Of a stretch of DNA of 64,000 nucleotides, positions 50,601-64,000 are shown in pieces. The notes below the pieces were generated by a model. That model ran no database searches, had not been told where the DNA came from, and was given only the letters and a program-made list of their open reading frames with translations. The stretch comes from Deltaproteobacteria bacterium (lineage in GTDB: Bacteria > JAGRBM01 > JAHCIT01): NCBI GenBank assembly GCA_026129095.1, contig JAHCIT010000006.1:1-64000 (forward strand), written 5' to 3'. Each line of letters begins with the position of its first letter. Position 1 is the stretch's first letter. The position numbers and the translations under genes were made by a program.

Positions 50601-53600
50601 GCCCGGAACTGTCATTCGCAACCCACTGGAGCCTGTTCGTGCTGCCATTAACAAGCAGGATATCCTCATACCCGCCATCGTCATTCAGATCAGCCACGGC
50701 CAGCCCCAACACCTGGTCTGACAGCGAAACCGTATGAACCGGAACCGGATCAAAGCAGTCATTCCCCGAGAAATCATAACCCAGAACAGTGATGCCAGAT
50801 GCCGACGAATGAGCCACTGCGAGGCCCGGATATCCCGAAACATCAAGCTGGGAGAACAGCGCAATGTGCACCACATTATCCGGGAGGGAATTGGTTCGCA
50901 TCGTTCCGAATTCGCCCTGCACGTCCGAGCTTCCCGGCCAGCACCGGAGCGTGTTCGAGTTTGTGTCGTTGACGACGATATCTTTCACAAAGTCGCCATC
51001 AATATCGGCCAGTATCATCTGGGTCGAATTCGGACCGGCATCCATGCTGTATCCTTCAGCAAAGCCGCCGCCGGACTGCCCAAGCATCACCTGGATACGG
51101 TTGTTGGGCGTATCGTCTTCGAGCAGGACCAGATCCAGCCGTCCGTCGGAGTCAACGTCGGTAACAGCCACGGCGTAGACATAACCGGGCCGGAAGATAT
51201 CTTCCGTCTGGCCCGTATCGAACGTGCCGTCTGGCCGTCCCACGGCCTCCTCACCGTCGTAGAGGCCGTCTGCATCGGTATCCGGCTCGAAGGGATTGGT
51301 ACCGGCGTTGCTGGGGCTGACCCAGGTTCCGGTCATCGTCTCCGCGCCATCCTTAAGGCCGTCAAAGTCGGTGTCAGGATTGTTCGGATCGGTGCCGGTA
51401 TCGAACGGTCCGTTGTAAACGCTCGTATTGGTTTCGACGCTATCCAGGAGTCCGTCCCCGTCCGAATCGGGGTTGAGCGGGTCGGTCCCCATGATGTTTT
51501 CCATATGGTCGGAAAGACCGTCGCCATCGGTATCCGGATTCCACGGATTCGTTCCATTCTGTATTTCAACGCCGTCCGGAACGGTATCGCCGTCACTGTC
51601 GCTACTGGTCGGATCGGTACCGAAAGCGATCTCCGCACTGTCGCTGAGTCCATCGCCATCCGTATCGGCATTGAGCGGGTCGGTCGTGGGAAGGATCGTT
51701 CCCACCACCGCGTAACTCGATCCGTCCGCATTTTCGCTTTCCCATGCAAGGAAGCGGCGGCCTGAACTGGACACCGCCACGGCCGGATTGTTCTGGGCCC
51801 CGGCAGTGATCTGGTTCACCTGGTATTGCGGTCCGTATGCGGTACCGGCACTGTCAAACTCGCGGGCGAAAATCCCGTAGAAATCGCCGTCGAGTCCGCC
51901 CAAATCCGCCCACAGCACGATGATCTCGTCGTCCCGGTTCATCCCGATGGCAGGCACACGCTGGAAATCGAACTCCTCGTTGTTCACGGCGAAATCCGGA
52001 CTCATCGGAGTGATGCTGTCATCGAATATCCGGGCGCGGATGCCGAGGCTGGCTGCGTCGGGGCTTGTCCAGGCAACGGCAAAGTTACCCGCCGCGTTCA
52101 TCGCAATGGCCGGATCATCCTGGGTCCCACCCGTGACCGAGTTGACCAAGTACATGTCCGTGTCGATCGCGCTTGACGGCAGCATCGTGCTGAGACGGAT
52201 GTCGGTATCAGAGCCGTTATGCGACGAGTAGACGATGAAGCTCAATCCCCATGAATCGACAGCCACATCCGGCTTGGTCTGCGCATTGGCAATTGTCCCG
52301 TGAACAACCACTTCGCCGGTCAATGGCGTGCCGTTCCGGTCAAACCGGCGGGCCACGACGTCCCACCCGCTGCCGCAGGTATTTTCACACTGCCACGCGA
52401 CAGTGAAGTCGCCCGTCTGCCGGTGGACACCAACCGAGGGGGCGCTCTGGTCGCCCGCAGTGGTCGCATTGACCTGGATTTCTCCGGTCTTTGGGGAACC
52501 ATCGCTACCGAATACCCGCGCATAGATTCCACCCAGGTCGCCGTCCTGTCCGTCGCTCATCCATACGACGACGAAATCCCCGTCGCCCGAAACAGCCACG
52601 TCCGGCTGGCTCTGGGTACCAGCGGACGTCGAATTGACGACGATTTCACCGCCCGTCTTCTCTCCGCTGTGCACAAGAAGCTGGGCACGGATGTCGGTCC
52701 CATCAACCCACGCGGCCACCCAGTTGCCATTCGGGCTTGCCGCCACGGACGCCAGTCCCTGGAAGCCTGCCGTCATTGTATTCACGACAAACTGCGTGCT
52801 GCCCTCTACGCCGGTGCATACCCCTGTCACCCAGGTGCCGTCACACAGACCATCGCCATCGGTGTCGGGGTTCAGCGGATCGGTACCGAGCGCCGTTTCG
52901 CTACCCGTGCAGATACCAACGACATTCAGGCCGTCGCACAGCCGGTCCCCGTCGGTATCGATATCAACGGGATTGGTCATGCGTGTCTGGCGCACGAAGA
53001 CGCCGTTTCCGTCTCCGTCACGGCCGGTGGTGTCCTCAAAAACGATCACCCAGTCGCCGCCAGCAAGGTAACCAGCCTTTACCATGTCACCGGAGGCACT
53101 CGGCTGCATCATCAGGAATTCCGGGCCCACGGACGTTCCGTTCCACTGGTAACGCTGCCCGTAAACCCTGAACATTCCGCTTCCGTCCTGGTCCCAGCTG
53201 GCCCAGGAAATCAGATAGTCCCCGCTGTTATGCTCGACAGAAACAGATGGCCGGGTCTGGTCGTACAGCGTATAGGAGTTGACCTGGTACTCACCGGCGT
53301 ACGGCGAACCGTTCATGTCGAACCGGCGGGCAAAGACGCCGCTGTTCGATCCGTCCTGGTTGCCACTCGCCCAGGCAACGACAAAATCCCCCGATACTGA
53401 TGTCGCCGAAATGGACGGATAGTTCTGGATATCCGCGGTGGTGGTGTTGGCCGTCAGTTCGGCGAATGCCTCGTTATTGGGCGCACTGAACCCGCGGACC
53501 CGGATATCCAGCGCATCGCCAGAATCATCCTCGAAGGCAATCGCCACCCGGCCCAGCCCGAGGGAAGCGATTGCAGGGCGCCCCTGGTTTCCGGCCGTCA

Positions 53601-56600
53601 CGCTGTTCACCTGGAACACCGGCGCAAAAGTTGTCTGCGACGGATAGGGCTGCCAGTACCGGGCGTAAATATCAGACCCTGTATCGCATCCGTCACAGCG
53701 CCAGGCGAGTACGAACTGGCCCGTCACGCTGGTTGTTGCAATGGCCGGCTGGTAACGGCTGTTTCCGTCTGGACCTACCGCCTCGACATCGTTATCAACC
53801 GGGTTGCCAGCGGCATCAAAGCGGCGGAGCCGGATCTGGTAAGTCCCGCTCCGGCTGTCGCTCCAGGCAACAACAAACCGGCCACTGTCGTCGACGGCTA
53901 TCGTTGGCTGAATCTGGTCGCCTGTATTGGTCGAATTAACAAGGATCTCCGTCGTTACCGGCCGGCCGGCGGAGTCGTACTTACGGGCATAAATGCCGCT
54001 CTGGTCACCGTCCGGGCCCGACCAGGCAACGACGTAACTGCCGTTACGCATGACCGCCAGCGCCGGGGCAAGCTGATGACCGGAAACAGTCTCGGTCGCA
54101 ATGAAGTCCAGTTGCCGTTCCGTGCCGTTGCAACTGCCGGTCATTTCATGCCCGTCGCACAGGCCGTCGCCATCCGTATCGGGATTGTTCGGGTCTGAAC
54201 CGGGATTGCCCGGACTGATGAAAGCCAGGCTCGCATTTTCGGCGCCGTCGAAATACCCGTCACCATCAGTATCCGGGACATTCGGATCCGTTCCGGTCAT
54301 GACGGCCGAGAAATAGGTTCCGCCGTTATCTTCATAGCCATCCCAGAGGCCGTCGAAATCGCTATCCGGCTCGTTTGGATCGGTACCGGGATCGGTCGCG
54401 CCGCCCCAGATGCCCGTGGCGCGTTCGATGAAATCAGAGAGTCCGTCACCATCCGAATCCTGGTTGCCCGGATCGGTGCCGGTATCGGTCGAACTCACCC
54501 AGATGCCGGTGTTGGTTTCGTACGCGTCCGGGATGCCGTCGCTGTCCGTATCCAGATAGCCCGCCGTGAAGGGGACCGTGTTCGAGTTCCACTCCGCCTC
54601 AACCAGATAGGTCGCCGGGTAGGTGACATCCAGTGTCAGGTAGATGGAACTCAGGCCGTCGCTGTCCGTGTAGTCAGGGATCGGTGCGCCCAGTATGCCC
54701 TCACCCAGGTTCGTCCAGGTAACCAGTTCGCCCGCGACACCGTTGCCAAACGCATCTGTCACGCGGACCACAAACGGGTCATCAAGTGTCAGGCCCGGAT
54801 CGCCCGTCTGTGCGTCTCCGCCCACATAGGTGACGTTCGACGCAGGACCCGGATTGACGTTCACCATGTAATCTGGCGGATCAAACGTAAGGCCCGGCAC
54901 GCTCAGCTCGACGTTCTTGCTTCCGGACACCGTCATGGAAATATCGTCAAAAGTGGCTTCGCCGTTTGTCGTGGGTTGCGTGACCGTGCCGTTCAGGCTG
55001 CCGGTTCCGCTGGTCAGTTCAACCGTGACGTCCAGGCCGTTGGTCGTGGACTGGTTGCCGTACTGGTCGGTGACCACACCCGTGAAGGTCGCCCAGTCTC
55101 CTCCGGCAGTTTCCGTGGGTGACGGGAACGTGCCGAACCGGACATAGGCGTCGGCACCTGGGGTCACGTCGAACGGATTGGAGATGGCCAGATCAAGCGG
55201 CGGGCTGGACGTCGCCAGCAGGGTGTAACCCGATGCTGCAATATCCACGTGTGTATTCAGGAAGAAAACAAAACCGCCAGTAACAGTCTTCGGATTGATC
55301 GTCGTACTCAGGACAGCCATTCCACCCGTAGGATCGTAATCGAAGGCCAGCGTCACCTCTGTCGAATAGTCATCAGCCACCAGGTTGCCATGCTGGTCAT
55401 GCACCTGGACCGCCACTGACTGGCTCTGGTCAGCCGTGCGGCTGATGGGACCGGAGGTGAACGCCAGCCGGGCCGGTGCGCCGGGCGTGACATCGAACAG
55501 ATTGGAGTCGTCATATGCCAGTCCCGGCGATGTCACCCTCAGCATGTAGTTCGACCCCACCTTGTCCAGATGGACCTGGTTGAAGACGGCGAGGCCGTTC
55601 GTCGCGAACACCGGATTTGTCCCGGCTGAAAGCGTTGCAGCACCGGGGTTCCATTCGATCGCCAGCGTCACGAGCGGCGGCGGCGGATTACCGGAGCCGC
55701 CAAGGTCCACGGCGGGCAGGTTGTCGCCCATTGTGCCGCCTGTTCCACCCCGACCGATCACATCGCCAAGGCCAAGCTGACCCCAAGCATTGTGACCCCA
55801 GCATTTGAGATCGTGATTATCCAATATGGCGCAATTACTCGAAAAACCCGATGCAAGGGCAAGAGCCGTCCGGCCGGACCCCAGATTCACCGCCGGAAGG
55901 TTATCGCCCATTTGACCAGGCGCATTACCGCGGGTTGTCGTATTACCAAGGCCCAGTTGGCCGGAGGCATTATCGCCCCAGCATTTCACGCTCCCGTTAT
56001 CCAGCAAGACGCAGGTGTGGGAGCCCGAAACGGCAAGTCCTGTCACTGTCCTGCCAGTGCCAAGGCTAACCACTGGCAGGTTGTCACCCATTTCGCCAGG
56101 TCCGTCACCACGAGTGACGGTATCCTCAAGTCCAAGCTGCCCAGAAGGAGACCGGCCCCAGCACTTCAGATTCCCATCGTTAAGCAGGGCGCAACTGTGA
56201 TCCTGTCCCGCGCCTACAGCAATCGCGGTCTTCCCGGCACCAAGGTCTACTGCGGGAAGATTGTCGCCCATTTCGCCGGGCCCGTCGCCACGATTGTCAG
56301 TATCGCCAAGACCGAGCTGGCCATAAAGGTTTATGCCCCAGCACTTGACCTGTCCGTTGTCCAGCAGGGCACAGGTATGATTGGTGCCCAGTGCGACATC
56401 AACAACAGTCCGGCCAGTCCCCAGATTTACCGCAGGCAGGCTGTCGCCCATGTGTGCAGGCGATGAACCGCGCTGTCCTGCATCGCCCAGCCCTAGCTGG
56501 CCGGACCCATTTGTCCCCCAGCATTTTAGGCTCTTGTCGTTCATCACGGCACATGTATGGCCGGCATTGGAAGGTCCGGCCGCAATCTTCACCGCCGTAA

Positions 56601-59600
56601 GCCCGGTCCCCAAATTCACGAATGGCAGCGCATCGCCCATATGGGCAGGACTCGTACCCCGGTGCGTCGTGTCCCCCAGACCGAGACGGCCCTGATTGTT
56701 CGTGCCCCAGCATTTGACAGTTCCATCAACAAACAAAACACACGAGTAGTCGGAACCAATGGCCGATTGCATAGCGGCCAATCCGGTTCCCAGATCCACG
56801 CCAGGCAGGTTATCGCCCATCTGGCCAGGACTACCACCTCGGTTCACTGAATCACCAAGCCCCAGCGCACCATTGGTATTGTGGCCCCAGCACTTGAGTG
56901 AATGATCACTCATTACCGCACAGGTTCTAACACCGCTTCCGCCTCCAGAAACCGCCACCTGCACCGGCATCGGGCGGAACGGACCCGTCACATCGTTCCC
57001 GTAGGCATCCCGTACCTGGGCGCTGACCATCTGGGTGTCGTCGGCCGTGACCGTGATTGGCTGCTGGACAACGGCGAGTGCCGCCGGATCGCCCGGCGTG
57101 ATGTCGAATGGATCGGAATCCGCCGTTCCGTAAGCGGGGACCGAGGACGCCCGCAGCGTGTAGCCAGACGACACCTTGTCCACCCACAGGCCGGTAAACT
57201 GGGCCACGCCGCCGGAAGCGGTCACGGGGTCGAAATCGTAGGAGAGCGTCGCGCCCACCGGGTTGTTCATCAGTGTGAGCGAAACCTGGGTCGAGCTGTC
57301 CGAAAGCACCGTGTTCCCGTAGTCGTCATGAATCTCGACCTCCACGGACTGCAACGCCCCGGCGGCGCGGTTCGCCGGATGACCCGTGAAGGCGAGACTG
57401 TTTGCCAAGCCGTGCGTCACGTCGAACGGATCGGAGATCGCCAGATCAAGCGGCGGGCTGGACGTCGCCAGCAGGGTGTAGCCGGTGGCCGCCTTGTCCA
57501 CATGGACATCCTGGAATACGGCGTATCCGCCGGAAACCGTCAGCGGATTCACAAGTGCCGTCAGGCTCGCAAACCCGCCCGTCGGGTCGTAATCGAATGC
57601 CAATGTCACTTCCGTCGTGGAGTCGTCGTCCACCAGATTACCGTACTGGTCGTGCACCGATACGCCGACGTCCGGATCCTGATCGGCGGTCCGGTTTGTG
57701 GGCTGCAGGAAGAACGCCAACTGGGCGGGAGCGCCGCGTGTAATGTTGAACAGGCTGGAGTCGTCATATGCCAGGCCGGGCGAGGTCACCCTCAGCATGT
57801 AGTTCGACCCCACCTTGTCCAGATGGACCTGGTTGAAGACGGCGAGGCCGTTCGCCGCATAGACCGGATTTTCCAGCGCCGTCAGAGCCGATCCGGCCGG
57901 GTTGACCTCGATCGCCAGCGTCACGAGCGGCGGCAGCGGATCACCCGAGCCGCCGAGGTCCACGGCGGGGAGAATGTCGCCCATGGTGCCGGGTGTAGCG
58001 CCACGAAGCAGCGCATCACCGAGGCCAAGCTGTCCGTTAAAATTGTATCCCCAGCATTTCACGGTCCTGTCGTCAAGAATCGCGCAACTGTGACCGGAAC
58101 CTGCGGCCAGCCGGATCGCCGTCCGGCCCGTGCCGAGATTCACAACCGGAAGATTGTCGCCCATCTCGCCGGGGCCGTCACCGCGGTCTTGCATATCTTC
58201 AAGACCCAGCGCGCCGTTGGAGTTGCTCCCCCAGCATTTTACGGTCTCGTTATCGAGAAGCGCGCACGTGTGGCTGTTCCCCGACGCCAGCCTGGCCACG
58301 GCCCGGCCGGTACCCATATCCACGGACGGGAGGTTGTCGCCCATTTCACCCGGTCCATCGCCGCGATTCTGCGTGTCACCGAGACCCAGTTCGCCAAACA
58401 GGTTGCTCCCCCAGCACTTCAGAACCCCGTTATCCAGGACAGCACAGTTATGGACAACTCCTGACACCAGCTTAAGCACCGTCCTGCCAGTGCCCAGATC
58501 CAGAGCCGGGAGGTTGTCACCCATCTCCCCCGGTCCGTCGCCCCGATCATCCGTATCCCCAAGGCCCAGTTGGCCCCGATCGTTACGGCCCCAACACTTG
58601 GCACTACCGTTGTCGAGAACCGCACACGTGTGGCTGTCTCCCGCTTTCAACTGCACCGCCGTCCGGCCGGTACCGAGGTTCACAGCAGGGAGGCTGTCGC
58701 CCATCTCGCCGGGGCCGTCACCACGATCCTGCATGTCTCCAAGGCCTAACGCGCCATTCAGGCTGCCTCCCCAGCACTTGACGGTCCCATTGTCGAGAAT
58801 TGCGCAGGTGTGGCCAAAGCCTGCCGCCAGTTGGACCGCCGTCCGGCCAGTGCCCAAGTCCACGGCCGGGAGACTGTCACCCATCTCGCCCGGTCCGTCG
58901 CCCCGGTTCTGGGTATCCCCAAGACCCAACTGGCCGCCAATGTTACGGCCCCAGCACTTTACGGTCCCATTATCGAGGAGTGCACAGGCATGGAAGTTGC
59001 CCATCGCCAGTTGGACCGCCGTCCGGCCAGTGCCAAGGTCCACGTCCGGGAGACTGTCACCCATCTCGCCCGGTCCGTCGCCCCGATCCTGCGTGTCTCC
59101 CAAGCCCAGCTGACCATGCTGATTGTGCCCCCAGCATTTCACGGCCCCGTTATCAATAATCGTACAGGTAAAGAAGCCACTTGCCGTCACCTGCGATGGC
59201 ACGGGCCGGAACGGACCGGTCACCTGGTTGCCGAAGGCGTCCCGTATTTCAGCGCTGACCATCTGGGTGTCATCGGCCGTGACCGTCACCGGCTGCTGGA
59301 TAAACAGGAGCTGGGCCGGATCGCCCGGCGTGATGTCGAACGCGGCGGAGCTCATCGTCCGCGGACCCTGCTGGGCCTGGAGAACCTTCGAGCCGGTGAT
59401 ATCGATGCTCAGGCTGTCCCCAGGCACCCAGGAGGCAACGCCCGCCACTGGTGCCACGGTGACCGTGCCCGACAGGGAACCTGACCCGCTCCAGAGCGAC
59501 AGCGTGATGTCGGCCACCGAATCCGGTCCGGTCGTGACCGTGTTGCCGTAGCCGTCACGCACCTCGACCACCGGCAGGAGCGGCGATCCGGCCTGCGTGG

Positions 59601-62600
59601 CTACCGGTTGCGTCGTGAAGGCCAGCGCCGACGCCACGCCGTGCGTGATATCGAAGGAACCGGAATCGGCGAAGGTCAGCCCGCCGGCCGTCGCCCGGAG
59701 GGTCTTCTGACCCGCCATGTCTATCGTGAGCGCATGACCCACCGACCAGGTAGCGACACCGGCTGTCGCGGGTATTGACGTGTTTCCATTGAGCGCTCCT
59801 GTACCCGACTGGAGCGCGAGCGCGACCGTCAGGGTCGAATCGGGACCGGTCGTCACCGTGTTGTCGTACGCGTCCCGTATCTCGACTTCCGGAAGCAGGA
59901 AGCCCCCGGCTGCCGTGTTCACCGGCTGGACCGTGAAAACGACGTGGTCACCCGGACCATGAGTAATGTCGAAGGGATCCGAAACATCCGGGACCAGCGG
60001 CGGAACGGATGTCGCCTCCAGCGTGTAGCCAATGCCCGTCTTGTTCACATGAACGCTCAGGAACTCCACTTCGCCAGCCGAAGCGATCTTCGAGGGCCCG
60101 CCCGCGATGCTCAGTGTCGAGCCGCCGGGGTTGTCGTAGATCGCCAGCGTGATTTCCGTCGCGTTGTCGGTGGTGACGAGGTTCCCGAATGTATCCTCTA
60201 TAAACACGGTGATGTTCTGGGTGATACCGGCCGAACTGTTCGCCGGCGGGAACGGGAATGCCAGCCGGCTTGCTGCGTCAGGAACAATCGTAACAGGCAG
60301 CGGGTCCGAATCGCCCCCCGGCAGCGCCGGGGAAGTGACCTTGATGGATATCCCCTCGGCCACTTCATAACTGATGTCCGTGAAGTCCACGACGCCCGCG
60401 GTGGCGATACCGGATGTGGTCCCGGTCAGGTTGCTGATGCCTGAGTCCAGTTCCAGCAGGACCGTTGCCGTCGAGAAGATGCCGGTCGTGACCGTGTTGC
60501 CGTACGCGTCCTGGATCGCCGCGCTGAAACTGTCCCAGGTGACGCCCGCCGTGATCGGACCCATCTGGCCGGGGGCCGGAGCGACAAACCCGACCTGCGC
60601 GGCCGCGCCGTGGGTTATGTTGAACAGGTCCGAGTCGGCATCGGTCAGGCCCGGCGAGGTCACCCGCAGCCGGTAGCCGGAAGCCACCCTGTCCAGATGG
60701 ACCTGGTTGAAGACGGCGAGGCCGTTCGTCGCGGGAACCGGATTTGTCTCGGCTGAAAGCGTCGAGCCGCCCGGGTTGTCTTGTAGAACCAGGGTAATGG
60801 CGGGAGCCGGAATACCCGTACCGCCAAGGTCCACGGCGGGCAGGTTGTCGCCCATCTCACCGGGCTGGTCGCCGCGATGGGCAGTATCACCGAGGCCCAG
60901 CTGGCCATTGGCGTTTGCACCCCAGCATTTCACATTGAAATTGTCGAGAATTGCACAGCTGGAGGCCGTATGCGCTGCCAATTTAGTCACTGTCCGGCCC
61001 GTGCCGAGGTCCAGGACAGGAAGGCTATCACCCATCTCCCCAGGACCGTCACCACGGTCCACCATATCCCCAAGACCAAGCTGGCCATTGGTATTGTAAC
61101 CCCAGCATTTTGTGGTCACATCATCAAGAACTGCGCAGGTATGGTAATAGCCCAATGACAGATGGGTAGCCGTTCGGCCGGCACCCAAATTCACGGATGG
61201 GAGACTGTCACCCATCTCACCAGGCCCATCACCTCGATTTGCCGTATCCCCAAGCCCCAGTTGTCCAGAGCTGTTCCACCCCCAGCATTTTACATCTCCG
61301 TTGTCGAGTATTGCGCAGGTATGACTTTGACCTGCCACCAGACTGATCGCAGTCCGGCCTGTGCCGAGAGACACGACCGGCAGATTATCACCCATCTCGC
61401 CACCGTTATCGCCCCGATGGGCCGTGTCGCCTAGACCCAACTGGCCGTTAGTGTTGTTACCCCAGCACTTGACAGTCTGATTATCGAGAAGTGCGCAGGT
61501 ATGGTATTGGCCTGCCACCAGACTGATCGCAGTCCGGCCTGTGCCGAGAACTACAGTGGGGAGGCTATCTCCCATTTCCCCCGGCCCAATTCCGCGATCC
61601 ACCGTATCTCCGAGACCAAGCTGGCCATTTCCAGCTTCTCCCCAGCACTTGACAGTCTGATTATCGAGAAGTGCACAGGTATGATAGCTGCCCGCCGCCA
61701 GATCCATTGCAGTTCGGCCCGTTCCAAGATCAACCGCGGGGAGATTGTCACTCATCTCGCCAGGGCCATCACCTCTGGTCACAAAATCACCGAGTCCCAA
61801 CTGGCCGAAGCTGTTATTTCCCCAGCATTTAAGGGCCCCGTTATCGAGTATCGCGCAGGTATGATCGCTACCGGAAGCAAGCTTGATCGCAGTCCGGCCT
61901 GTACCTAGAGACACGGTCGGGAGATTATCACCCATCTCGCCACCGTTATCGCCCCGGTGGGCCGTGTCGCCCAGACCCAGCTGGCCGTTAGTGTTGTAAC
62001 CCCAGCACTTGACGTTGCCGTTACTGAGAAGGACGCAATAGCGGTGAAAACCCGCCGCCACCTGCACCGGCACCGGCCGGAACGGACCGGTCACGTCGTT
62101 CCCGTAGGCGTCCTGAACCTGGGCGCTGACCATCTGGGTGTCGTCGGCCGTGACCGTGATTGGCTGCTGGACAAAGGCAAGCTGGGCCGGATCGCCTACC
62201 GTGATGTCGAACGCGGCGGAGCTCATCGTCCGCGGACCCTGCTGGGCCTGGAGAACCTTCGAGCCGACAATGGCGATGTTCAGGCTGTCCCCAGGCACCC
62301 AGGAGGCAATGCCCGCCGACGGCGCCTTGGTAACGGTGCCTGACAGCACACCCGAACCGCTCCAGAGCGACAGGGTGATGTCGGCCACCGCATCCGGGCC
62401 GGTCGTGACCGTGTTGCCATAGCCATCACGCACCTCGACCACCGGCAGGAGCGGCGATCCGGCCTGCGTGGTTACCGGCTGCGTCGTGAAGACGAGCGCC
62501 GATGCCGCGCCGTGGGTAATGTCAAAGTAGTCCGACGAGGCAGGCGTGAGCGGCGGAGATGAAAGTGCTTCCAGCGCGTATCCGGTAAATGCCTTGTCAA

Positions 62601-64000
62601 TATGGACGCTGGAGAACACCGCTATGCCCGCCGAAACCGTCACCGGATTTACCGCCACATCCAGCGTGGCCGCGCCGCCGCTCGGATCGATATCGAACCC
62701 CAGCGTGATCTCGGTCGCAAAGTCGGTATCCACAAGGTTGTCATGGAAGTCCCGGACCTCCACTTCCACGCTCTGGCTCTGGTCGGTCGTGCGGTTGCCC
62801 GGCTGGGTGACGAACGCCATCCGGTCCGGAACACCGGGAGTGATGTCGAAGGGATCGGTTACATCACTTCCGAGACCGGAAGCCGTTGCTTCCAGCGTGT
62901 ATCCGGAGCCTGTCCTGTTCAGTGCCACCGAGACGAAGGTCGCGCTGCCGCCCGTGGCCATCACCGGATTGGCGGACACACTGAGAGTTGAGCCGCCCGG
63001 ATTGTCGAAGATGGCGAGGGTGATTTCGGTCGTGTTGTCCGAGGAAGCCAGGTTGCCGTACCCGTCCCGCACCTCGACCGTGAGGGACTGGGAGTTGTCC
63101 GTCGAGCGATTAACAGGCTGTGAGAAGAAGACCAGGTGATCGGCCGCGCCGTGCGTGATATCGAAAGAACCCGATGTCGCGGGCAGCAGCAGCGGCGGCA
63201 CCGCATCGGCGCGCAGGGTGTAACCCACGCCCGCCTTATCCAGCCGGACATCAACAAAATCCACCAGACCGGCATCCGCCGTTTCCGGATTGACAATCAC
63301 CGAGAGCGAGGACGCACCGGGGTTATCCTGGATTGAAAGGGAAACCACCGTCGTGCTGTCGCTCGTTACCCGGTTACCCTGCTGGTCCTCGATCTGGACG
63401 GAAACACCCTGCACATTGTCCGCTGTTGAATTCGCCGGGCCGCTGAAGAAACCGAGCCGGAACGCCACGCCGTGCGTGATGTTAAACGGAGCCGAGACAT
63501 CGGGGGTCAGCACCGGAACCGAATCGGCCCGCAGCGTGTAGGCACTGCCCACCCGGTTCAGGTGAACATCCACGAATGCCACCACGCCAGCCGCTGCCGT
63601 CACGGGATTATCAGCCATGGTCAGCGTCGATCCGCCGGTATTGTCCTGGAAGGCGAGCGTCACCTGGGTCGTGCTGTCCGTGTCAACCACGTTGTCGTTG
63701 GCATCACGGATCTCGACCGTCACGTTCTGCACGTCGTCGGCCGTCACGCCGGCCGGACCGCTCACGAAGGCGAGCTTCGTGGCCGCACTGGCGGTAATGT
63801 CGAATGGATCGGAAACGCCGGGAATCAGCAGCCCGGAACCGGCTTCCAGCGTATAACCGGTCCCAGTCTTGTCCAGATTCACGCCGGTAAAGACCGCTAC
63901 ACCTCCCGTGGCATCAAGCGGGTTTTCATCGGCCGTGATGAGCGCGCCGCCGGGATTGTCAAAAATGAGCAGTTCGACGGTGGCGGTGGAATCCGGCCCG
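41686..64000 (-). CDS. Giant multi-propeller, Ig-like repeat surface protein (5' end outside window)
   Basis: The frame is open without a stop from 64000 to the TAG at 41686-41688: at least 7437 residues, with the N-terminus and any signal peptide beyond the window. From the visible N-terminal end the order is as follows. About 18 Ig-like modules come first, three holding an inserted seven-bladed RCC1 propeller. Then come thrombospondin-3-like Ca-binding repeats, two V-NS-T-GDQ repeat domains, an FG-GAP domain, a BNR/sialidase-like domain, a second FG-GAP domain and a fourth RCC1 propeller. A PPC-like domain, a right-handed beta-helix and an unassigned C-terminal part follow. Paired Cys in nearly every RCC1 blade imply an oxidising, extracytoplasmic location. 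No LPXTG, PEP-CTERM or autotransporter domain is seen at the C-terminus (ends FGQDRLVHVLLPR). Adhesion or cell-surface recognition is the likely role, and no enzyme activity can be assigned. Antisense frames are shadows. Confidence 0.9.
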   Translation of the reverse strand, partial: GPDSTATVELLIFDNPGGALITADENPLDATGGVAVFTGVNLDKTGTGYTLEAGSGLLIPGVSDPFDITASAATKLAFVSGPAGVTADDVQNVTVEIRDANDNVVDTDSTTQVTLAFQDNTGGSTLTMADNPVTAAAGVVAFVDVHLNRVGSAYTLRADSVPVLTPDVSAPFNITHGVAFRLGFFSGPANSTADNVQGVSVQIEDQQGNRVTSDSTTVVSLSIQDNPGASSLSVIVNPETADAGLVDFVDVRLDKAGVGYTLRADAVPPLLLPATSGSFDITHGAADHLVFFSQPVNRSTDNSQSLTVEVRDGYGNLASSDNTTEITLAIFDNPGGSTLSVSANPVMATGGSATFVSVALNRTGSGYTLEATASGLGSDVTDPFDITPGVPDRMAFVTQPGNRTTDQSQSVEVEVRDFHDNLVDTDFATEITLGFDIDPSGGAATLDVAVNPVTVSAGIAVFSSVHIDKAFTGYALEALSSPPLTPASSDYFDITHGAASALVFTTQPVTTQAGSPLLPVVEVRDGYGNTVTTGPDAVADITLSLWSGSGVLSGTVTKAPSAGIASWVPGDSLNIAIVGSKVLQAQQGPRTMSSAAFDITVGDPAQLAFVQQPITVTADDTQMVSAQVQDAYGNDVTGPFRPVPVQVAAGFHRYCVLLSNGNVKCWGYNTNGQLGLGDTAHRGDNGGEMGDNLPTVSLGTGRTAIKLASGSDHTCAILDNGALKCWGNNSFGQLGLGDFVTRGDGPGEMSDNLPAVDLGTGRTAMDLAAGSYHTCALLDNQTVKCWGEAGNGQLGLGDTVDRGIGPGEMGDSLPTVVLGTGRTAISLVAGQYHTCALLDNQTVKCWGNNTNGQLGLGDTAHRGDNGGEMGDNLPVVSLGTGRTAISLVAGQSHTCAILDNGDVKCWGWNSSGQLGLGDTANRGDGPGEMGDSLPSVNLGAGRTATHLSLGYYHTCAVLDDVTTKCWGYNTNGQLGLGDMVDRGDGPGEMGDSLPVLDLGTGRTVTKLAAHTASSCAILDNFNVKCWGANANGQLGLGDTAHRGDQPGEMGDNLPAVDLGGTGIPAPAITLVLQDNPGGSTLSAETNPVPATNGLAVFNQVHLDRVASGYRLRVTSPGLTDADSDLFNITHGAAAQVGFVAPAPGQMGPITAGVTWDSFSAAIQDAYGNTVTTGIFSTATVLLELDSGISNLTGTTSGIATAGVVDFTDISYEVAEGISIKVTSPALPGGDSDPLPVTIVPDAASRLAFPFPPANSSAGITQNITVFIEDTFGNLVTTDNATEITLAIYDNPGGSTLSIAGGPSKIASAGEVEFLSVHVNKTGIGYTLEATSVPPLVPDVSDPFDITHGPGDHVVFTVQPVNTAAGGFLLPEVEIRDAYDNTVTTGPDSTLTVALALQSGTGALNGNTSIPATAGVATWSVGHALTIDMAGQKTLRATAGGLTFADSGSFDITHGVASALAFTTQPVATQAGSPLLPVVEVRDGYGNTVTTGPDSVADITLSLWSGSGSLSGTVTVAPVAGVASWVPGDSLSIDITGSKVLQAQQGPRTMSSAAFDITPGDPAQLLFIQQPVTVTADDTQMVSAEIRDAFGNQVTGPFRPVPSQVTASGFFTCTIIDNGAVKCWGHNQHGQLGLGDTQDRGDGPGEMGDSLPDVDLGTGRTAVQLAMGNFHACALLDNGTVKCWGRNIGGQLGLGDTQNRGDGPGEMGDSLPAVDLGTGRTAVQLAAGFGHTCAILDNGTVKCWGGSLNGALGLGDMQDRGDGPGEMGDSLPAVNLGTGRTAVQLKAGDSHTCAVLDNGSAKCWGRNDRGQLGLGDTDDRGDGPGEMGDNLPALDLGTGRTVLKLVSGVVHNCAVLDNGVLKCWGSNLFGELGLGDTQNRGDGPGEMGDNLPSVDMGTGRAVARLASGNSHTCALLDNETVKCWGSNSNGALGLEDMQDRGDGPGEMGDNLPVVNLGTGRTAIRLAAGSGHSCAILDDRTVKCWGYNFNGQLGLGDALLRGATPGTMGDILPAVDLGGSGDPLPPLVTLAIEVNPAGSALTALENPVYAANGLAVFNQVHLDKVGSNYMLRVTSPGLAYDDSSLFNITRGAPAQLAFFLQPTNRTADQDPDVGVSVHDQYGNLVDDDSTTEVTLAFDYDPTGGFASLTALVNPLTVSGGYAVFQDVHVDKAATGYTLLATSSPPLDLAISDPFDVTHGLANSLAFTGHPANRAAGALQSVEVEIHDDYGNTVLSDSSTQVSLTLMNNPVGATLSYDFDPVTASGGVAQFTGLWVDKVSSGYTLRASSVPAYGTADSDPFDITPGDPAALAVVQQPITVTADDTQMVSAQVRDAYGNDVTGPFRPMPVQVAVSGGGSGVRTCAVMSDHSLKCWGHNTNGALGLGDSVNRGGSPGQMGDNLPGVDLGTGLAAMQSAIGSDYSCVLFVDGTVKCWGTNNQGRLGLGDTTHRGTSPAHMGDALPFVNLGTGLTAVKIAAGPSNAGHTCAVMNDKSLKCWGTNGSGQLGLGDAGQRGSSPAHMGDSLPAVNLGTGRTVVDVALGTNHTCALLDNGQVKCWGINLYGQLGLGDTDNRGDGPGEMGDNLPAVDLGAGKTAIAVGAGQDHSCALLNDGNLKCWGRSPSGQLGLEDTVTRGDGPGEMGDNLPVVSLGTGRTVTGLAVSGSHTCVLLDNGSVKCWGDNASGQLGLGNTTTRGNAPGQMGDNLPAVNLGSGRTALALASGFSSNCAILDNHDLKCWGHNAWGQLGLGDVIGRGGTGGTMGDNLPAVDLGGSGNPPPPLVTLAIEWNPGAATLSAGTNPVFATNGLAVFNQVHLDKVGSNYMLRVTSPGLAYDDSNLFDVTPGAPARLAFTSGPISRTADQSQSVAVQVHDQHGNLVADDYSTEVTLAFDYDPTGGMAVLSTTINPKTVTGGFVFFLNTHVDIAASGYTLLATSSPPLDLAISNPFDVTPGADAYVRFGTFPSPTETAGGDWATFTGVVTDQYGNQSTTNGLDVTVELTSGTGSLNGTVTQPTTNGEATFDDISMTVSGSKNVELSVPGLTFDPPDYMVNVNPGPASNVTYVGGDAQTGDPGLTLDDPFVVRVTDAFGNGVAGELVTWTNLGEGILGAPIPDYTDSDGLSSIYLTLDVTYPATYLVEAEWNSNTVPFTAGYLDTDSDGIPDAYETNTGIWVSSTDTGTDPGNQDSDGDGLSDFIERATGIWGGATDPGTDPNEPDSDFDGLWDGYEDNGGTYFSAVMTGTDPNVPDTDGDGYFDGAENASLAFISPGNPGSDPNNPDTDGDGLCDGHEMTGSCNGTERQLDFIATETVSGHQLAPALAVMRNGSYVVAWSGPDGDQSGIYARKYDSAGRPVTTEILVNSTNTGDQIQPTIAVDDSGRFVVAWSDSRSGTYQIRLRRFDAAGNPVDNDVEAVGPDGNSRYQPAIATTSVTGQFVLAWRCDGCDTGSDIYARYWQPYPSQTTFAPVFQVNSVTAGNQGRPAIASLGLGRVAIAFEDDSGDALDIRVRGFSAPNNEAFAELTANTTTADIQNYPSISATSVSGDFVVAWASGNQDGSNSGVFARRFDMNGSPYAGEYQVNSYTLYDQTRPSVSVEHNSGDYLISWASWDQDGSGMFRVYGQRYQWNGTSVGPEFLMMQPSASGDMVKAGYLAGGDWVIVFEDTTGRDGDGNGVFVRQTRMTNPVDIDTDGDRLCDGLNVVGICTGSETALGTDPLNPDTDGDGLCDGTWVTGVCTGVEGSTQFVVNTMTAGFQGLASVAASPNGNWVAAWVDGTDIRAQLLVHSGEKTGGEIVVNSTSAGTQSQPDVAVSGDGDFVVVWMSDGQDGDLGGIYARVFGSDGSPKTGEIQVNATTAGDQSAPSVGVHRQTGDFTVAWQCENTCGSGWDVVARRFDRNGTPLTGEVVVHGTIANAQTKPDVAVDSWGLSFIVYSSHNGSDTDIRLSTMLPSSAIDTDMYLVNSVTGGTQDDPAIAMNAAGNFAVAWTSPDAASLGIRARIFDDSITPMSPDFAVNNEEFDFQRVPAIGMNRDDEIIVLWADLGGLDGDFYGIFAREFDSAGTAYGPQYQVNQITAGAQNNPAVAVSSSGRRFLAWESENADGSSYAVVGTILPTTDPLNADTDGDGLSDSAEIAFGTDPTSSDSDGDTVPDGVEIQNGTNPWNPDTDGDGLSDHMENIMGTDPLNPDSDGDGLLDSVETNTSVYNGPFDTGTDPNNPDTDFDGLKDGAETMTGTWVSPSNAGTNPFEPDTDADGLYDGEEAVGRPDGTFDTGQTEDIFRPGYVYAVAVTDVDSDGRLDLVLLEDDTPNNRIQVMLGQSGGGFAEGYSMDAGPNSTQMILADIDGDFVKDIVVNDTNSNTLRCWPGSSDVQGEFGTMRTNSLPDNVVHIALFSQLDVSGYPGLAVAHSSASGITVLGYDFSGNDCFDPVPVHTVSLSDQVLGLAVADLNDDGGYEDILLVNGSTNRLQWVANDSSGQFGPVQTLLEGASFNPPMTLHGHVRVAGLDGNDRPDVLFTGQIGVNHFVAAGYQPGGSGPGVPVRFARVAQLGTAPTLTETTGIFAGDLSGDGRPDVIVGRVAFEAEIFRGEGIFGRPTGELVSDNALSGTSDSRSFVLADFNGDGAADLVVADTSGVKIIPANTVGLGYSSDPNNEDTDGDFLCDGSVVTGICSGTESGWDTDPLNPDTDGDWLSDSDELYITFTDPTDPDSDRDLVPDGAELPGEGMDPLLPGYSLTASPQSLEYFGNVVVTNPVIRWLPRSEDVPVVAFSRHEVLAGVPQPAETQVRRSLNGGVVFSANVVGSHDPDGEIDVAAATSRFLNDYYAVFTALSPTSPWDNDIMFLRSQNGAQSFDSLNLTNHSGGWSGHTPAVAASGARVAVAFHEVDDTGTDDAIQVQVSNNRGQSFTTTGWPYWFSGGSTASQPDIAVAENGDIAVVYVANYGGYGQVEIACSTDGGSGYTAAFDVSADPASNHTSPRIAALHNGGGWAVVWLRVGVNGPEVWFAVVGDECSSTFTGQIEVTPSLETESRGPSVAVGPRNQLYLGWEQRRSNVPDEKEADFYLARSYDGGFTWALTKSVSPNIWQYGNGVSVAVDAAGRPTMAFTWVKADEMAGFTSIGLVIGGPDSDGDQYPDFAETNTGTMENFRDVGTDPALSDTDSDGLPDGWEVHYGINPHLWDTDGDGLPDGGEVVRRNLDGKFEMAAQYNTGTHALSGPRYMATGDFNLDGRQDIAVAGGNNVMLVYSGDGTGQFTGPAQYTLGSSTTAGIEMADMNRDGFMDLVVFYQAGQFQVFYGCAGISSPLAGCLGVGQFEAGVLHNSTGAGGITSGGVIDLNGDSNLDIMMAYGVLGQIRTFTATGFNSWPGSPVTPYDNGGFEPLGFAYVADVNRDGLKDIYFPETESGYVHTLPLCGAVQPVSGCSAGTGQPGNSFGALQSRPVSDELADVMMADINADLVPDLVSLMRDSQKVQTRMQGGINGRGTLEFANTGFQDLDLNPAVTPSWFTMADLDQNGALDIIIPGGSSETRMQVFYGHVDEQGGAYGLPNGNYHISPRQYELASYDFDRVSVADFNGDGVPDLALANWMYNELVVMLGEAQFSRRSDPALADSDGDGLCDGYVAVGACAGAENDFRESKMISIGAEHVCARETDRSDWPGALWCWGGNLYGQLGYGDTTPRGDDPGEMSSLPNVLLGSGATSEMVTAGGYHNCAIRPGGSVKCWGRNTSGELGQGTTNHMGDGPGEMSNNLPVTNLGTGQSATFIDAGSSHTCAILASGQVKCWGINSSGELGLGDVNNRGDNGGEMGDNLPFVDLGTGRTAVQVSAGNNHTCAILDDGSVKCWGFGMQGRLGYEDGVSRGDGPGEMGDNLPVVNLGTGRTAVQIVAGGGHTCALLDNGGVKCWGYNAYGISGQGDTNDRGDNAGEMGDGLPYVDFGTGRRARHISASGISAHTCALLDNGKVKCWGRNHFGQLGIGDTQNRGDSPGEMGDNLPYVDLDGEVVMVSTGGVTSCGILRDGRVKCWGMNNQGQLGVGDWQHRGDNPGEMGAALKAATPPAVSGFVHYTDPALSDSDGDGQCDGPVNTPWCQGLDPDPLDPWIFNEPFGDNIGAVVNLDTTGDSVAQYTGRFDARGDIDTFYLQGLRAGQVVKLNVQLLEPGSVGVKLVDSTEGMILDIPGPGDQANGNWTVQVPHDNQDYTLTLYYQIPPGNSFAPSDYELSLDVSGYAIQSGGGDTSPGTLRFGMETLPGLISGPLTVRPGAVSQVVLAVTASYNDEDDFTLDGMGQLQISKTDSAFNALYIEPVSGAPHITIRGIELDAVSSWNLIVVYIGGQASGVDIHGNSFRFNVPVSGTSPAIWLGSANTDFYGNRVSANFRGDGIVYVAGDGLMQVRDNNIAVRDGSGGVIRQEAMTGDVRIENNRITMYDPFSTSMGVRVVEMPGSLNITGNSVTCMGSTNVQGFRTEFSVNDVRFARNTVSGCQNGFLIQDENTVIEDNHLVYNDTGIFLTGSASNTVIRRNRIDLTDHDGNGVWNDGELTKIVGNTFIGGHSPGNHIYMNSANTAGTLIAGNLFRGMVTTPAQGIYVAIGAATGNSFPDPANTVIVANNTFAYMDPAIEWASPTGNAPGIDLRNNIFSGSQNEALIFHPTAFTPGTSHASSNVFIANGSDCIAYSSPNFCTQNSLDSISYPWNQSPEFADEASGDFSLDASYPSPYFDLGDANPVILREIEKYLPDIRLATAATSVVRDVWSTTSFSGGSELHPESGRYDGMWIRFTSGAGTGQYRQISWYDGSGREFNFAGPVSFDPGDHFEIFKATPVINVLNGGLRIEGHNSLSFQIDYYTGKWLRCIRVGGTGCVDGEMRKVVSYNGTSKYLDLDFAFSTSPDGDDLLEFVVAPEPGFWQDSQTSQGGGGSHDGSGIRAYFSRRAAPVGEPVQLHLTLKFHVLEASEAWDTVFLTLPQFVGGNCTTQKVNGVGTGCGSFMEQDVMMVPISGNIDPQTWEQTVELFLEVGSDEFDGKGMKDIQVAVGSSYHFSGFPRSPVPVIPESERWGTKIRFGDDPRPAVFNGMFPPYHADFVDSTSTAVSAITSVNPAVPTQGLFLYTDYPWPVLTSRAILNNAGETQEYQLGYSSLNAMVQPIGIAREAQYLTPLNYSDSNVIFGAFVAGPVAFRSQPGFTVGHSYVLRSADIRKVTANAFPVSLMQSTDVTGLSGCTGGNMRSIAVTETAWNHQTTSPVTQGAIAAICNSGGSPNTLHMWPENQTAPNSGNVLFNALSLGGPPFNFHNDVDVRISAWTGPALSGAAHSGDLVMLGAETANASKYKLMVWDQYTNGSGGDIRSVAMIPPGTWMGGDPKEIVYHPMTGTVFVLVSDSIDFAEVVELDLGGRVLGRWSLAQVIYPDGDMTLFEPIGIASAPMPNNIADDARSHGVPLFITANDWNFGQDRLVHVLLPR
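41689..43880 (-). other. C-terminal part of the giant protein, unassigned
   Basis: About 730 residues after the beta-helix. Segments such as DNTHMWPENQTAPNSGNV-like LHMWPENQTAPNSGNVLF, AAHSGDLVMLGAE and IVYHPMTGTVFVLVSDSIDF suggest another propeller (NHL or SMP30-like), but no family motif is firm. It contains few Cys. No membrane anchor or sorting motif is visible at the very end. Confidence 0.45.
43880..45760 (-). repeat. PPC-like domain followed by a right-handed parallel beta-helix
   Basis: Residues after GDNIGAVVNLDTTGDSVAQY through RGDIDTFYLQGLRAGQVVKL form a pre-peptidase C-terminal (PPC)-like beta domain (about 45370-45760). It is followed by about 15 coils of a parallel beta-helix (about 43880-45365) with the repeating pattern xxIxGNxF / xIxxNxI (ITGNSVTCMG, IRRNRIDLTD, IVGNTFIGGH, IVANNTFAYM). 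Similar helices occur in polysaccharide-binding or -cleaving and adhesin proteins. Confidence 0.8.
45862..47130 (-). repeat. RCC1 propeller block 4 (seven blades), between calcium-repeat segments
   Basis: Seven blades from ISIGAEHVCARETD to GDWQHRGDNPGEMG. Unlike the first three it is not nested in an Ig-like module. It follows a TSP3-type segment (SDGDGLCDGYVAVGACAG) and precedes another (SDSDGDGQCDG). The first blade has a longer Cys-Cys spacing and reads LWCWGGN. Confidence 0.88.
48665..49840 (-). repeat. BNR/sialidase-like propeller domain
   Basis: A stretch of about 390 residues has Asp-box-like elements (RSLNGGVVFSANVVG, RSQNGAQSFDSLNL, SNNRGQSFTTTGW, RSYDGGFTWALTKSV) spaced between hydrophobic strands (VPVVAFSRHEV, TAVAASGARVAVAFHE). 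This resembles sialidase-type propellers. The full sialidase catalytic set was not found, so it is probably a structural or binding domain. Confidence 0.7.
50100..51195 (-). repeat. FG-GAP/VCBS domain 1
   Basis: Integrin-type FG-GAP blades: VAVTDVDSDGRLDLVLLED, ILADIDGDFVKDIVVND, LAVADLNDDGGYEDILLV, FAGDLSGDGRPDVIVGR and VLADFNGDGAADLVVADT. The DxDxDGxxD loops are calcium sites. About six blades would close one propeller. A second, similar domain with DFNLDGRQDIAVAGG and ADFNGDGVPDLALANW lies at about 47230-48430. Confidence 0.85.
51200..51690 (-). repeat. Thrombospondin type-3-like calcium-binding repeats (main cluster)
   Basis: Consecutive DTDGDGLSDxxE / DSDGDGLLDSVE units with GTDPxxPD linkers. 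The same motif occurs in further segments at about 54105-54560, 52805-52985, 49840-50093, 48440-48660, 47150-47225 and 45765-45850. Each joins two larger domains. Such Asp-rich repeats bind Ca and probably act as rigid, calcium-dependent joints. Confidence 0.88.
51695..54100 (-). repeat. Two propeller-like domains of V-NS-T-GDQ repeats
   Basis: Repeats of about 50-60 residues (EILVNSTNTGDQIQPTIAVD, then FVVAWSDSRSGTYQIRLRRF) are grouped in two sets, roughly 52990-54100 and 51695-52800, separated by a TSP3-type segment. Each set has six to seven units with the pattern xxVNSxTxGxQxxPxIAxxxxGxFVVAW, resembling beta-propeller blades of sialidase-like or cell-surface proteins. Confidence 0.7.
55692..56970 (-). 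repeat. RCC1 propeller block 3 (seven blades), inserted in Ig-like module 15
   Basis: Seven blades from GVRTCAVMSDHSLKCWG to NLPAVDLGGSGNP, between VTGPFRPMPVQVA and LVTLAIEWNPGAA. Same insertion point as in blocks 1 and 2; the blades are more divergent (for example TNNQGRLGLGDTTHRGTSP). Confidence 0.9.
57945..59195 (-). repeat. RCC1 propeller block 2 (seven blades), inserted in Ig-like module 12
   Basis: Seven blades from GFFTCTIIDNGAVKCWG to NLPAVDLGGSGDP, between VTGPFRPVPSQVT and LVTLAIEVNPAG. Blades here are more alike (TQDRGDGPGEMG repeated), suggesting recent duplication within the block. Confidence 0.9.
59199..62521 (-). repeat. Segmental duplication within the giant gene (offset 2871 bp = 957 codons)
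   Basis: About 450 bp at 62071-62521 recurs at 59199-59650 with high identity, including a perfect match of more than 60 bases starting at 62201 and 59330. The copy covers the Ig-like modules preceding RCC1 blocks 1 and 2 and their entry into the propeller. The offset is a multiple of three, so the frame is kept. Confidence 0.85.
60818..62067 (-). repeat. RCC1 propeller block 1 (seven blades), inserted in Ig-like module 7
   Basis: Seven 60-residue RCC1-type blades (HTCAILDNGxxKCWG, then NGQLGLGDTxxRGDGPGEMG, then DNLPxVxLGTGRTA). The block lies between VTGPFRPVPVQVA and IPAPAITLVLQDNPGG, so it replaces the loop SDNTTE of a plain Ig-like module. Confidence 0.9.

What the first reader, a model, noticed from the sequence alone, without database searches (positions are those of the whole stretch)
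55692..62067. Complete RCC1 beta-propellers nested inside Ig-like modules, three times at the same loop
RCC1 blocks 1-3 each interrupt an Ig-like module between VTGPFRP(V/M)P and (I/V)TLxIxxNPGG. Plain modules read DGYGNLASSDNTTEITLAIF at the same place, so about 410 residues replace a short loop. All three have exactly seven blades, a closed propeller. Nesting a whole propeller in an Ig loop, repeatedly at one site, implies a stalk carrying side-mounted propellers. I know of no described protein with this architecture.
Basis: partly seen in the sequence, partly recalled or inferred. Interest (0 to 1): 0.82.

Follow-up and report, generated by a model that had tools for sequence, protein, structure and literature searches.

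The report
Propellers plugged into Ig stalk loops
A giant predicted bacterial surface protein carries three complete seven-bladed propeller domains, each inserted into the same loop of an immunoglobulin-like stalk module, so its likely binding heads stick out sideways from an otherwise continuous stalk.

Summary
One ORF (41686-63999, minus, continuing outside the window; about 9,940 aa from a likely GTG start with a lipoprotein-like signal) has about 39 Ig-like modules. Modules 29, 34 and 37 (529, 530, 537 aa instead of about 106) are interrupted by complete seven-blade RCC1 propellers. A profile of 34 plain modules matches only their two ends. AlphaFold2 places all Ig strands on both sides of the insert, which lies between the second and third strand (B-C loop), with a closed UVR8/RCC1-like ring between them.

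Two refinements. 'Three times' is one insertion plus copying: the nested frames form one clade (100/99). And the frames are near-copies while the propellers are not: synonymous identity is 0.69-0.74 in frames, 0.33-0.44 in propellers (chance 0.34), and blades 1-6 show no positional orthology. So the propeller seems to turn over while its frame is kept.

No match to this Ig profile was found in 57 other RCC1 ORFs scanned; junction searches, which were capped, found no second case. Domain insertion into surface-protein domains is known (integrin beta, RrgA); I found no propeller case. The function, a multivalent surface adhesin, is inferred.

The parts
41686..63999 (-). part inside the window of one ORF of 9,976 codons (frame open to about C6:71,616); about 9,938 aa from a GTG start that gives MNTYSRFHRRWMLALMAAAAMLAAPGC, a lipoprotein-like signal
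   Evidence: start choice and lipobox by eye, not by a predictor
62086..62199 (-). nested module 29, Ig N half (first two strands, ends DAYGNDVTG)
   Evidence: HMM 2-38, 33.0 bits
60799..62085 (-). insert 1: seven-blade RCC1 propeller with linkers, 429 aa
   Evidence: RCC1 and RCC1-like families over the Pfam cut-offs
60613..60798 (-). nested module 29, Ig C half
   Evidence: HMM 43-105, 74.9 bits
59215..59328 (-). nested module 34, Ig N half
   Evidence: HMM 1-38, 33.5 bits; pLDDT block means 84-95 in the model
57925..59214 (-). insert 2: seven-blade RCC1 propeller with linkers, 430 aa
   Evidence: superposes on UVR8, Z 34-35, within model residues 141-567 of 743
57739..57924 (-). nested module 34, Ig C half
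   Evidence: HMM 44-105, 60.9 bits; pLDDT block means 88-96
56983..57096 (-). nested module 37, Ig N half
   Evidence: HMM 1-50 (weak after 38), 31.6 bits
55672..56982 (-). insert 3: seven-blade RCC1 propeller with linkers, 437 aa
   Evidence: Pfam
55486..55671 (-). nested module 37, Ig C half
   Evidence: HMM 44-105, 68.7 bits
62839..63153 (-). plain Ig-like module 26, reference for the uninterrupted loop
   Evidence: AlphaFold2 pLDDT 97.2; Ig-type fold, intimin among the matches
59329..59643 (-). plain module 33, 90% identical in DNA to module 28 (62200-62514): left neighbour copied along with the Ig N half
45832..47211 (-). TSP3-like unit with the fourth RCC1 propeller (seven blades) in its variable loop
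52960..54180 (-). TSP3-like unit with an insert of seven repeats of about 53 aa (the last one partial); propeller inferred from the repeat number
51667..52866 (-). TSP3-like unit with an insert of seven repeats of about 53 aa; propeller inferred from the repeat number
50071..51282 (-). TSP3-like unit with an insert of FG-GAP (integrin-alpha-type propeller) repeats
48658..49908 (-). domain that follows a complete TSP3-like repeat (not in the slot); family unclear, only sub-threshold BNR and Reelin matches
47212..48498 (-). TSP3-like unit with an insert of FG-GAP repeats

Best explanation
This is a giant, probably outer-surface lipoprotein whose stalk of intimin/invasin-type Ig modules carries three side-mounted RCC1 propellers. 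SHOWN by sequence and prediction: each propeller is a complete seven-blade ring placed in the loop between the second and third Ig strands (B-C loop), and both Ig halves fold as one ordinary module (the fold was predicted for module 34 only). SHOWN by tree and DNA: the nested frame arose once and was copied twice with parts of its neighbourhood, and the frames are now much more alike than the propellers they hold. INFERRED: blades 1-6 turned over inside a kept frame; insertion is tolerated because a propeller's first and last strands meet, so its ends span a loop-sized gap; the stalk can carry load through the folded Ig sandwich while the propeller hangs off the load path; the propellers are binding heads (adhesion, prey or polymer recognition), and blade turnover changes what they bind. 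My estimates: nested architecture 0.95; single insertion plus copying 0.9; propeller turnover relative to the frame 0.7-0.8; ligand-binding or adhesive function 0.55.
For: Split HMM match. MAFFT split. AlphaFold2 of modules 33-35: nested Ig halves have pLDDT block means 84-96, with strands at the positions of the plain module (4-9, 22-30, 43-50, 70-78, 82-90, 102-104; the nested module has 4-11, 22-30, then, after subtracting 425, 43-50, 70-78, 82-91, 102-105). Propeller: UVR8 rows Z 34.2-35.0 with 339-353 residues aligned, all within model residues 141-567. Plain module: GH2 C-terminal Ig Z 12.1, intimin D0 Z 10.8. Nested frames one clade at 100/99. Four-fold sites identical, frames against propellers: 35/51 v 79/178, 42/57 v 52/156, 40/56 v 57/170 (Fisher 0.0025, 1.7e-7, 9e-7; chance 0.34). 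Blade tree: by position 20 changes against 19.7 for shuffles; by block 12 against 16.1 (2 of 200 as low). A C-x9-C pair in 27 of 28 blades, which would fit disulphides and an extracytoplasmic site.
Against: No coordinates or PAE were available, so the orientation of propeller to stalk was not measured; the model's pTM is 0.54 and blade loops have pLDDT block means down to 33. The alignment given to AlphaFold2 contained plain modules already split around the insert, which favours a closed Ig. The Ig match is not exclusive: filamin, Runt and velvet domains score Z about 9-10, and some RCC1 rows (RPGR) start at model residue 105-106, inside the Ig N half. Frame four-fold counts are small, and unrelated neighbouring modules reach 7/20, 8/20 and 12/23, so codon usage explains part of the frame value. 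For blocks 1 and 2 the propeller value (0.44) is above chance. Blade 7 does group by position, but its segment includes the shared linker; most branches of the blade tree are weak. The adhesive function has no direct evidence: downstream neighbours are metabolic by Pfam; upstream ORFs were listed but not annotated.
Confidence: 0.8

Rival explanations
1. Three independent insertions of a propeller into a hot-spot loop.
For: Same loop in all three, and the propellers are close to chance identity at synonymous sites for two of three pairs.
Against: The Ig frames of the three form one clade with support 100/99 among 37 modules; they share GPFRP, which no plain module has; neighbours are co-duplicated (m28/m33 90% and m35/m38 70% DNA identity).
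Confidence: 0.05
2. The propellers are ordinary copies and the Ig frames only look recent because gene conversion has homogenised them.
For: Frame and propeller differ in synonymous identity; conversion between tandem Ig modules is plausible. It gives nearly the same pattern as propeller turnover.
Against: Blades lack positional orthology and cluster weakly by block, which points to blade turnover itself; the left neighbours m28/m33 are equally similar, as copying predicts.
Confidence: 0.3
3. The propeller simply sits between two partial or degenerate Ig domains, end to end.
For: End-to-end placement is the usual arrangement in the other RCC1 proteins whose flanks I read.
Against: The N half stops at HMM 38 (weakly 50) and the C half starts at 43/44 of one 105-position module, three times; all strands present and confident in module 34.
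Confidence: 0.04
4. Assembly or frame artefact.
For: Highly repetitive gene in a 23-contig draft genome.
Against: No stop in 9,976 codons; contig of 259,610 bases; longest exact repeat 98 bases in the gene and 70 in the nested region, short enough for ordinary reads.
Confidence: 0.03
5. The propellers are spacers or S-layer-like structural units, not binding heads.
For: No catalytic or known ligand-site signature was found; S-layer Ig domains are among the fold matches.
Against: RCC1/BLIP-II and FG-GAP propellers are usually interaction domains (established knowledge); the blades seem to turn over faster than the frame.
Confidence: 0.3

Closest known systems
Integrin beta subunit (hybrid domain with inserted betaI domain)
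   Same: A whole domain inserted into the hybrid domain of a surface adhesion receptor (PMC9856412, passages; that the hybrid is Ig-like is recalled).
   Different: The insert is the betaI (vWA/MIDAS-type, recalled) domain and occurs once; here the insert is a seven-blade propeller and occurs three times along one stalk.
RrgA, pneumococcal pilus tip adhesin
   Same: D3 inserted in D2 and D2/D3 inserted in D1; D1 and D2 are built from both ends of the chain (PMC5333627, passages).
   Different: That paper calls D2 non-Ig-like; isopeptide bonds and sortase anchoring; no propeller or tandem repetition is described in those passages.
Bacterial RCC1 propeller proteins (Myxococcota and others)
   Same: Same blade type, up to 68% identity over 226 residues of the query; commonly seven or fourteen blades. 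One RCC1 protein is listed among M. xanthus vesicle proteins (PMC4158809, passages).
   Different: In the ORFs whose flanks I read, the propeller is mostly C-terminal, end to end with the preceding domain; L106 and L117 have internal blocks that also look end to end.
Giant Ig-array surface proteins of nanohaloarchaea
   Same: 9,409 and 8,880 aa, tandem Ig-like domains and WD40 propellers (PMC10266531, passages).
   Different: The propellers follow one Ig-like domain in sequence; nesting is not mentioned in those passages; the protein ends in an ATPase domain.
Amplification of beta-propellers from single blades (Pereira and Lupas 2022)
   Same: A known process of blade turnover, with RCC1/BLIP-II as the third largest group (PMC9218822, passages).
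   Different: Its main text does not contain the terms 'inserted', 'insertion' or 'immunoglobulin'.

Membership tests
RCC1-like propeller (PF00415, PF13540, PF25390) | RCC1 repeats over the curated cut-off | tested here: met
   all three nested stretches over the cut-offs of the three families
RCC1-like propeller (PF00415, PF13540, PF25390) | seven blades closing into a ring | tested here: met
   seven blades each; the model of insert 2 superposes on the UVR8 ring, Z 34-35; inserts 1 and 3 were not modelled
Big_1 / invasin-intimin Ig-like domain (PF02369) | sequence match over the Pfam cut-off | tested here: not met
   no Big_1 match in modules 28-30, 33-35, 36-38; one stretch over the cut-off (36.8 bits against 34.9) in window 53401-55161; the other modules were not scanned
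Big_1 / invasin-intimin Ig-like domain (PF02369) | intimin-type Ig sandwich | tested here: met
   plain module pLDDT 97.2; intimin D0 Z 10.8, 94 aligned, 2.3 A; invasin Z 9.4; other Ig-like folds score similarly
Domain-in-Ig insertion (integrin-beta-like principle) | host Ig domain complete, with both halves in one fold | tested here: met
   (prediction, no coordinates)
Domain-in-Ig insertion (integrin-beta-like principle) | inserted domain is a vWA/MIDAS domain | tested here: not met
   the insert is an RCC1 propeller
Giant surface adhesin | surface location and adhesion | not testable with these tools
   only a lipoprotein-like N terminus by eye and cysteine pairs
TSP3_bac repeat (PF18884) | match over the cut-off in the linker region | tested here: met
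   52.2 bits against 25 in window 50401-53400; 17.4 (below) in 53401-55161

The most novel reading that the evidence does not exclude
A general slot-and-cassette design: stalk repeats have one fixed loop into which whole beta-propellers are plugged, the frame is kept by selection or copying, and the blades are rebuilt inside it to change specificity. In this one protein eight inserts of about 370-440 aa sit in stalk slots (three in Ig B-C loops, five in the variable loop of TSP3-like repeats), and all eight have RCC1, FG-GAP or seven-repeat signatures. An unrelated IMG/VR contig (L123) has two RCC1 propellers and two other long inserts after one motif of its cysteine-rich stalk repeats.
Probability: 0.3. 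Interest if true: 0.75.

Novelty: new variant of a known kind. Interest (0 to 1): 0.58.

Why it matters
It shows that a 430-residue ring can be carried in a 12-residue Ig loop and copied along a stalk, a natural template for side-mounted binding heads. It also offers, in one gene, a test case for how propellers may renew their blades while their setting stays fixed. The claim is directly testable with one expressed module.

Tried and rejected
Three independent insertions: rejected by the module tree. Plain end-to-end domains: rejected. Assembly artefact: unlikely. A second nested Ig case elsewhere: not found. In detail: (a) genome-contig scan of A1: 3 loci, Ig arrays in which no RCC1 was seen; (b) nested module against 60 genomes including the own, both genomes held of the own phylum and 195 genomes of one phylum that I take to be Myxococcota: RCC1 matches, but among the rows shown none covers both Ig ends outside G000; (c) junction query (blade 7 plus Ig C half) in 189 genomes of that phylum, 386 including the own and 2 of another phylum: among the rows shown only the three own places cover both blade and Ig half. 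One row, G174:C758, seemed to span; reading it showed a propeller ending at a stop. Stretches around rows that start inside the Ig N half (G250:C109, G029:C54 and C31) and one row on the Ig side only (G256:C84) were fetched and scanned with the Ig profile: G250 has RCC1 without Ig match, G256 has whole Ig modules without RCC1, the G029 stretches gave no ORF with three CWG-type motifs or an Ig match. Limits: only the best 7-24 candidates per genome were scored and the lists were cut, so rare cases can be missed. The C2 paralogue in the own genome (3,499 aa, 26 module matches) shows no nested insert. RCC1 ORFs scanned with the Ig profile, flanks read by eye: 40 (some are overlapping pieces of one gene), 14, 3; none has a match. 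For RCC1 nested in other kinds of module I looked only by eye.

Ten literature searches were made; six aimed at this architecture and four at background. The listings showed no description of a propeller inside an Ig loop; I opened only passages of a few papers, and subscription journals are mostly absent. Stevens and Paoli 2008 on RCC1-like proteins was seen only as a reference, not read.

The 'nesting' in the TSP3 region depends on where a repeat is said to begin: those inserts lie between conserved cores, so this may be ordinary linking. One of the six long units (48658-49908) is not in the slot at all: its domain follows a complete repeat.
Full report
WHAT IS THERE. One minus-strand ORF covers 41686-63999 and continues beyond the window to about C6:71,616 (9,976 open codons). 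A GTG start gives about 9,938 aa beginning with a lipoprotein-like signal (MNTYSRFHRRWMLALMAAAAMLAAPGC; judged by eye). The order is: 39 segments cut by a motif pattern, of which 34 plain and 3 long ones are the Ig-like modules used here (the first two differ and were left out); TSP3-like repeats with six long units; a beta-helix region and a C-terminal part.

THE NESTING. An HMM made from the 34 plain modules alone matches the long modules only at their ends: positions 1-38 on the left (2-38 in module 29, 1-50 with a weak end in module 37) and 43/44-105 on the right. MAFFT, given whole plain triples, opened a gap at the same place. In the AlphaFold2 model of modules 33-35 (743 aa, mean pLDDT 73.7, pTM 0.54) the nested Ig halves have pLDDT block means of 84-95 (residues 101-140) and 88-96 (571-640). 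A separate model of plain module 26 (pLDDT 97.2) gives strands 4-9, 22-30, 43-50, 70-78, 82-90, 102-104. The nested module shows strands at the same positions, with the insert between the second and third; I call this the B-C loop by the order of strands. The insert superposes on the seven-blade ring of UVR8 (Z 34.2-35.0, 339-353 aligned residues, all within model residues 141-567) and, with lower Z, on RCC1, RPGR, HERC and BLIP-II (RPGR rows start at residue 105-106). Only module 34 was modelled. The plain module's fold is Ig-like: the C-terminal Ig domain of GH2 enzymes (Z 12.1), intimin (10.8), invasin (9.4), but also filamin, Runt and velvet domains at about 9-10.

HISTORY. The tree of 37 modules with inserts removed puts the three nested frames in one clade (100/99). 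Modules 28 and 33 are 90% identical in DNA and modules 35 and 38 70%. So there was one insertion, then copying of [28-29] to [33-34] and of [34-35] to [37-38] or the reverse. The frames and their contents differ. Using domain boundaries, four-fold sites are identical in 35/51, 42/57 and 40/56 of frame codons but only 79/178, 52/156 and 57/170 of propeller codons (Fisher 0.0025, 1.7e-7, 9e-7); the chance level from the gene's own codon use is 0.34. With boundaries moved after inspection the contrast is 42/61 v 72/168, 52/68 v 42/145 and 48/67 v 49/159. Controls among unrelated neighbouring modules are 7/20, 8/20 and 12/23, so part of the frame value may be codon usage. Blade i of one block is hardly closer in amino acids to blade i of another than to other blades: blocks 1 and 2, 0.69 against 0.64-0.65; 1 and 3, 0.58 against 0.55-0.58; 2 and 3, 0.60 against 0.55-0.58. 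In a tree of 28 blades position explains nothing overall (20 changes against 19.7 shuffled) and block explains a little (12 against 16.1; 2 of 200 as low); only blade 7, whose segment includes the shared linker, groups by position (most branches weak). The simplest reading is blade turnover inside a kept frame; conversion of the frames would give much the same picture. Blade amplification as a process is known (PMC9218822, passages).

SURROUNDINGS. The plain TSP3-like repeats are 22, 23 or 31 aa. Six long units (400-460 aa) follow among them. Five carry a domain after the D-G-x-x of the repeat and before its (T/S)-(D/N)-P, where the plain repeats also vary in length: two domains of seven repeats of about 53 aa, two FG-GAP domains and a fourth seven-blade RCC1 propeller. 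In the sixth (48658-49908) the domain follows a complete repeat and its family is unclear. Whether the five are nested depends on the choice of repeat phase. 27 of 28 RCC1 blades have a C-x9-C pair.

RELATIVES. The own phylum has two genomes in the collection. RCC1-type matches occur in 156 of 195 genomes of another phylum (taken to be Myxococcota, names are not given). In the ORFs whose flanks I read, RCC1 propellers are mostly C-terminal, and none of the ORFs has a match to the Ig profile (40 ORFs, some overlapping; 14, of which L106 and L117 have internal blocks; 3). Junction searches showed blade plus Ig half together only at the three own places (189 genomes; 386 including the own; 2; capped lists). 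A viral-contig scan found one contig, L123, whose 2,227-aa ORF has two RCC1 propellers and two further long inserts after the CxxNEYV-like motif of 37-aa cysteine-rich repeats: a parallel in a different stalk. There the right parts of three of the four long units match the repeat profile (26.9-29.7 bits), and so does a 106-aa unit (23.7), but the left parts are only about ten residues (at most 5.1 bits, none in one unit) and the second RCC1 unit is not matched significantly, so this parallel rests partly on the regular motif.

MECHANISM. Shown: a ring in an Ig loop, three times, with frames more alike than rings. Inferred: the ring's meeting ends make it fit a loop; the stalk stays continuous; the rings are lateral binding heads. 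No binding or location data exist.

NOVELTY. Domains inserted in domains of surface adhesins are known (integrin beta hybrid/betaI; RrgA insertions). Six searches of an open-access library aimed at this architecture listed no report of a propeller in an Ig loop. I file it as a new variant of a known kind.

Noticed in passing
45832-54180: Five of six long TSP3-like units carry a domain of about 370-430 aa in the variable loop of the repeat; with the Ig cases this makes eight slot-mounted domains in one protein, all with propeller-type signatures.
   Followed up: partly
L123:296-6976: IMG/VR contig: a 2,227-aa ORF with RCC1 propellers and other long inserts placed after the CxxNEYV-like motif of 37-aa cysteine-rich repeats, a parallel to the Ig case.
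   Followed up: partly
L082:2631-13127 (G000:C2): Second giant Ig-array ORF of the same genome (3,499 aa, 26 module matches), without nested inserts, ending in other repeats.
   Followed up: yes
60799-62085, 57925-59214, 55672-56982, 45832-47211: 20 of the 28 RCC1 blades carry an RGD in a long loop such as RGDGPGEMGDNLP (22 RGD in the whole protein); meaning unknown.
   Followed up: no
L035, L036, L040 (N flank of RCC1): Domains before C-terminal RCC1 propellers end in stretches such as SDIHGATVTGP (L035), loosely recalling the Ig junction DAYGNDVTGP; a possible source of the left junction, not tested.
   Followed up: no
41689-44400: C-terminal 904 aa without a family match over a cut-off.
   Followed up: no
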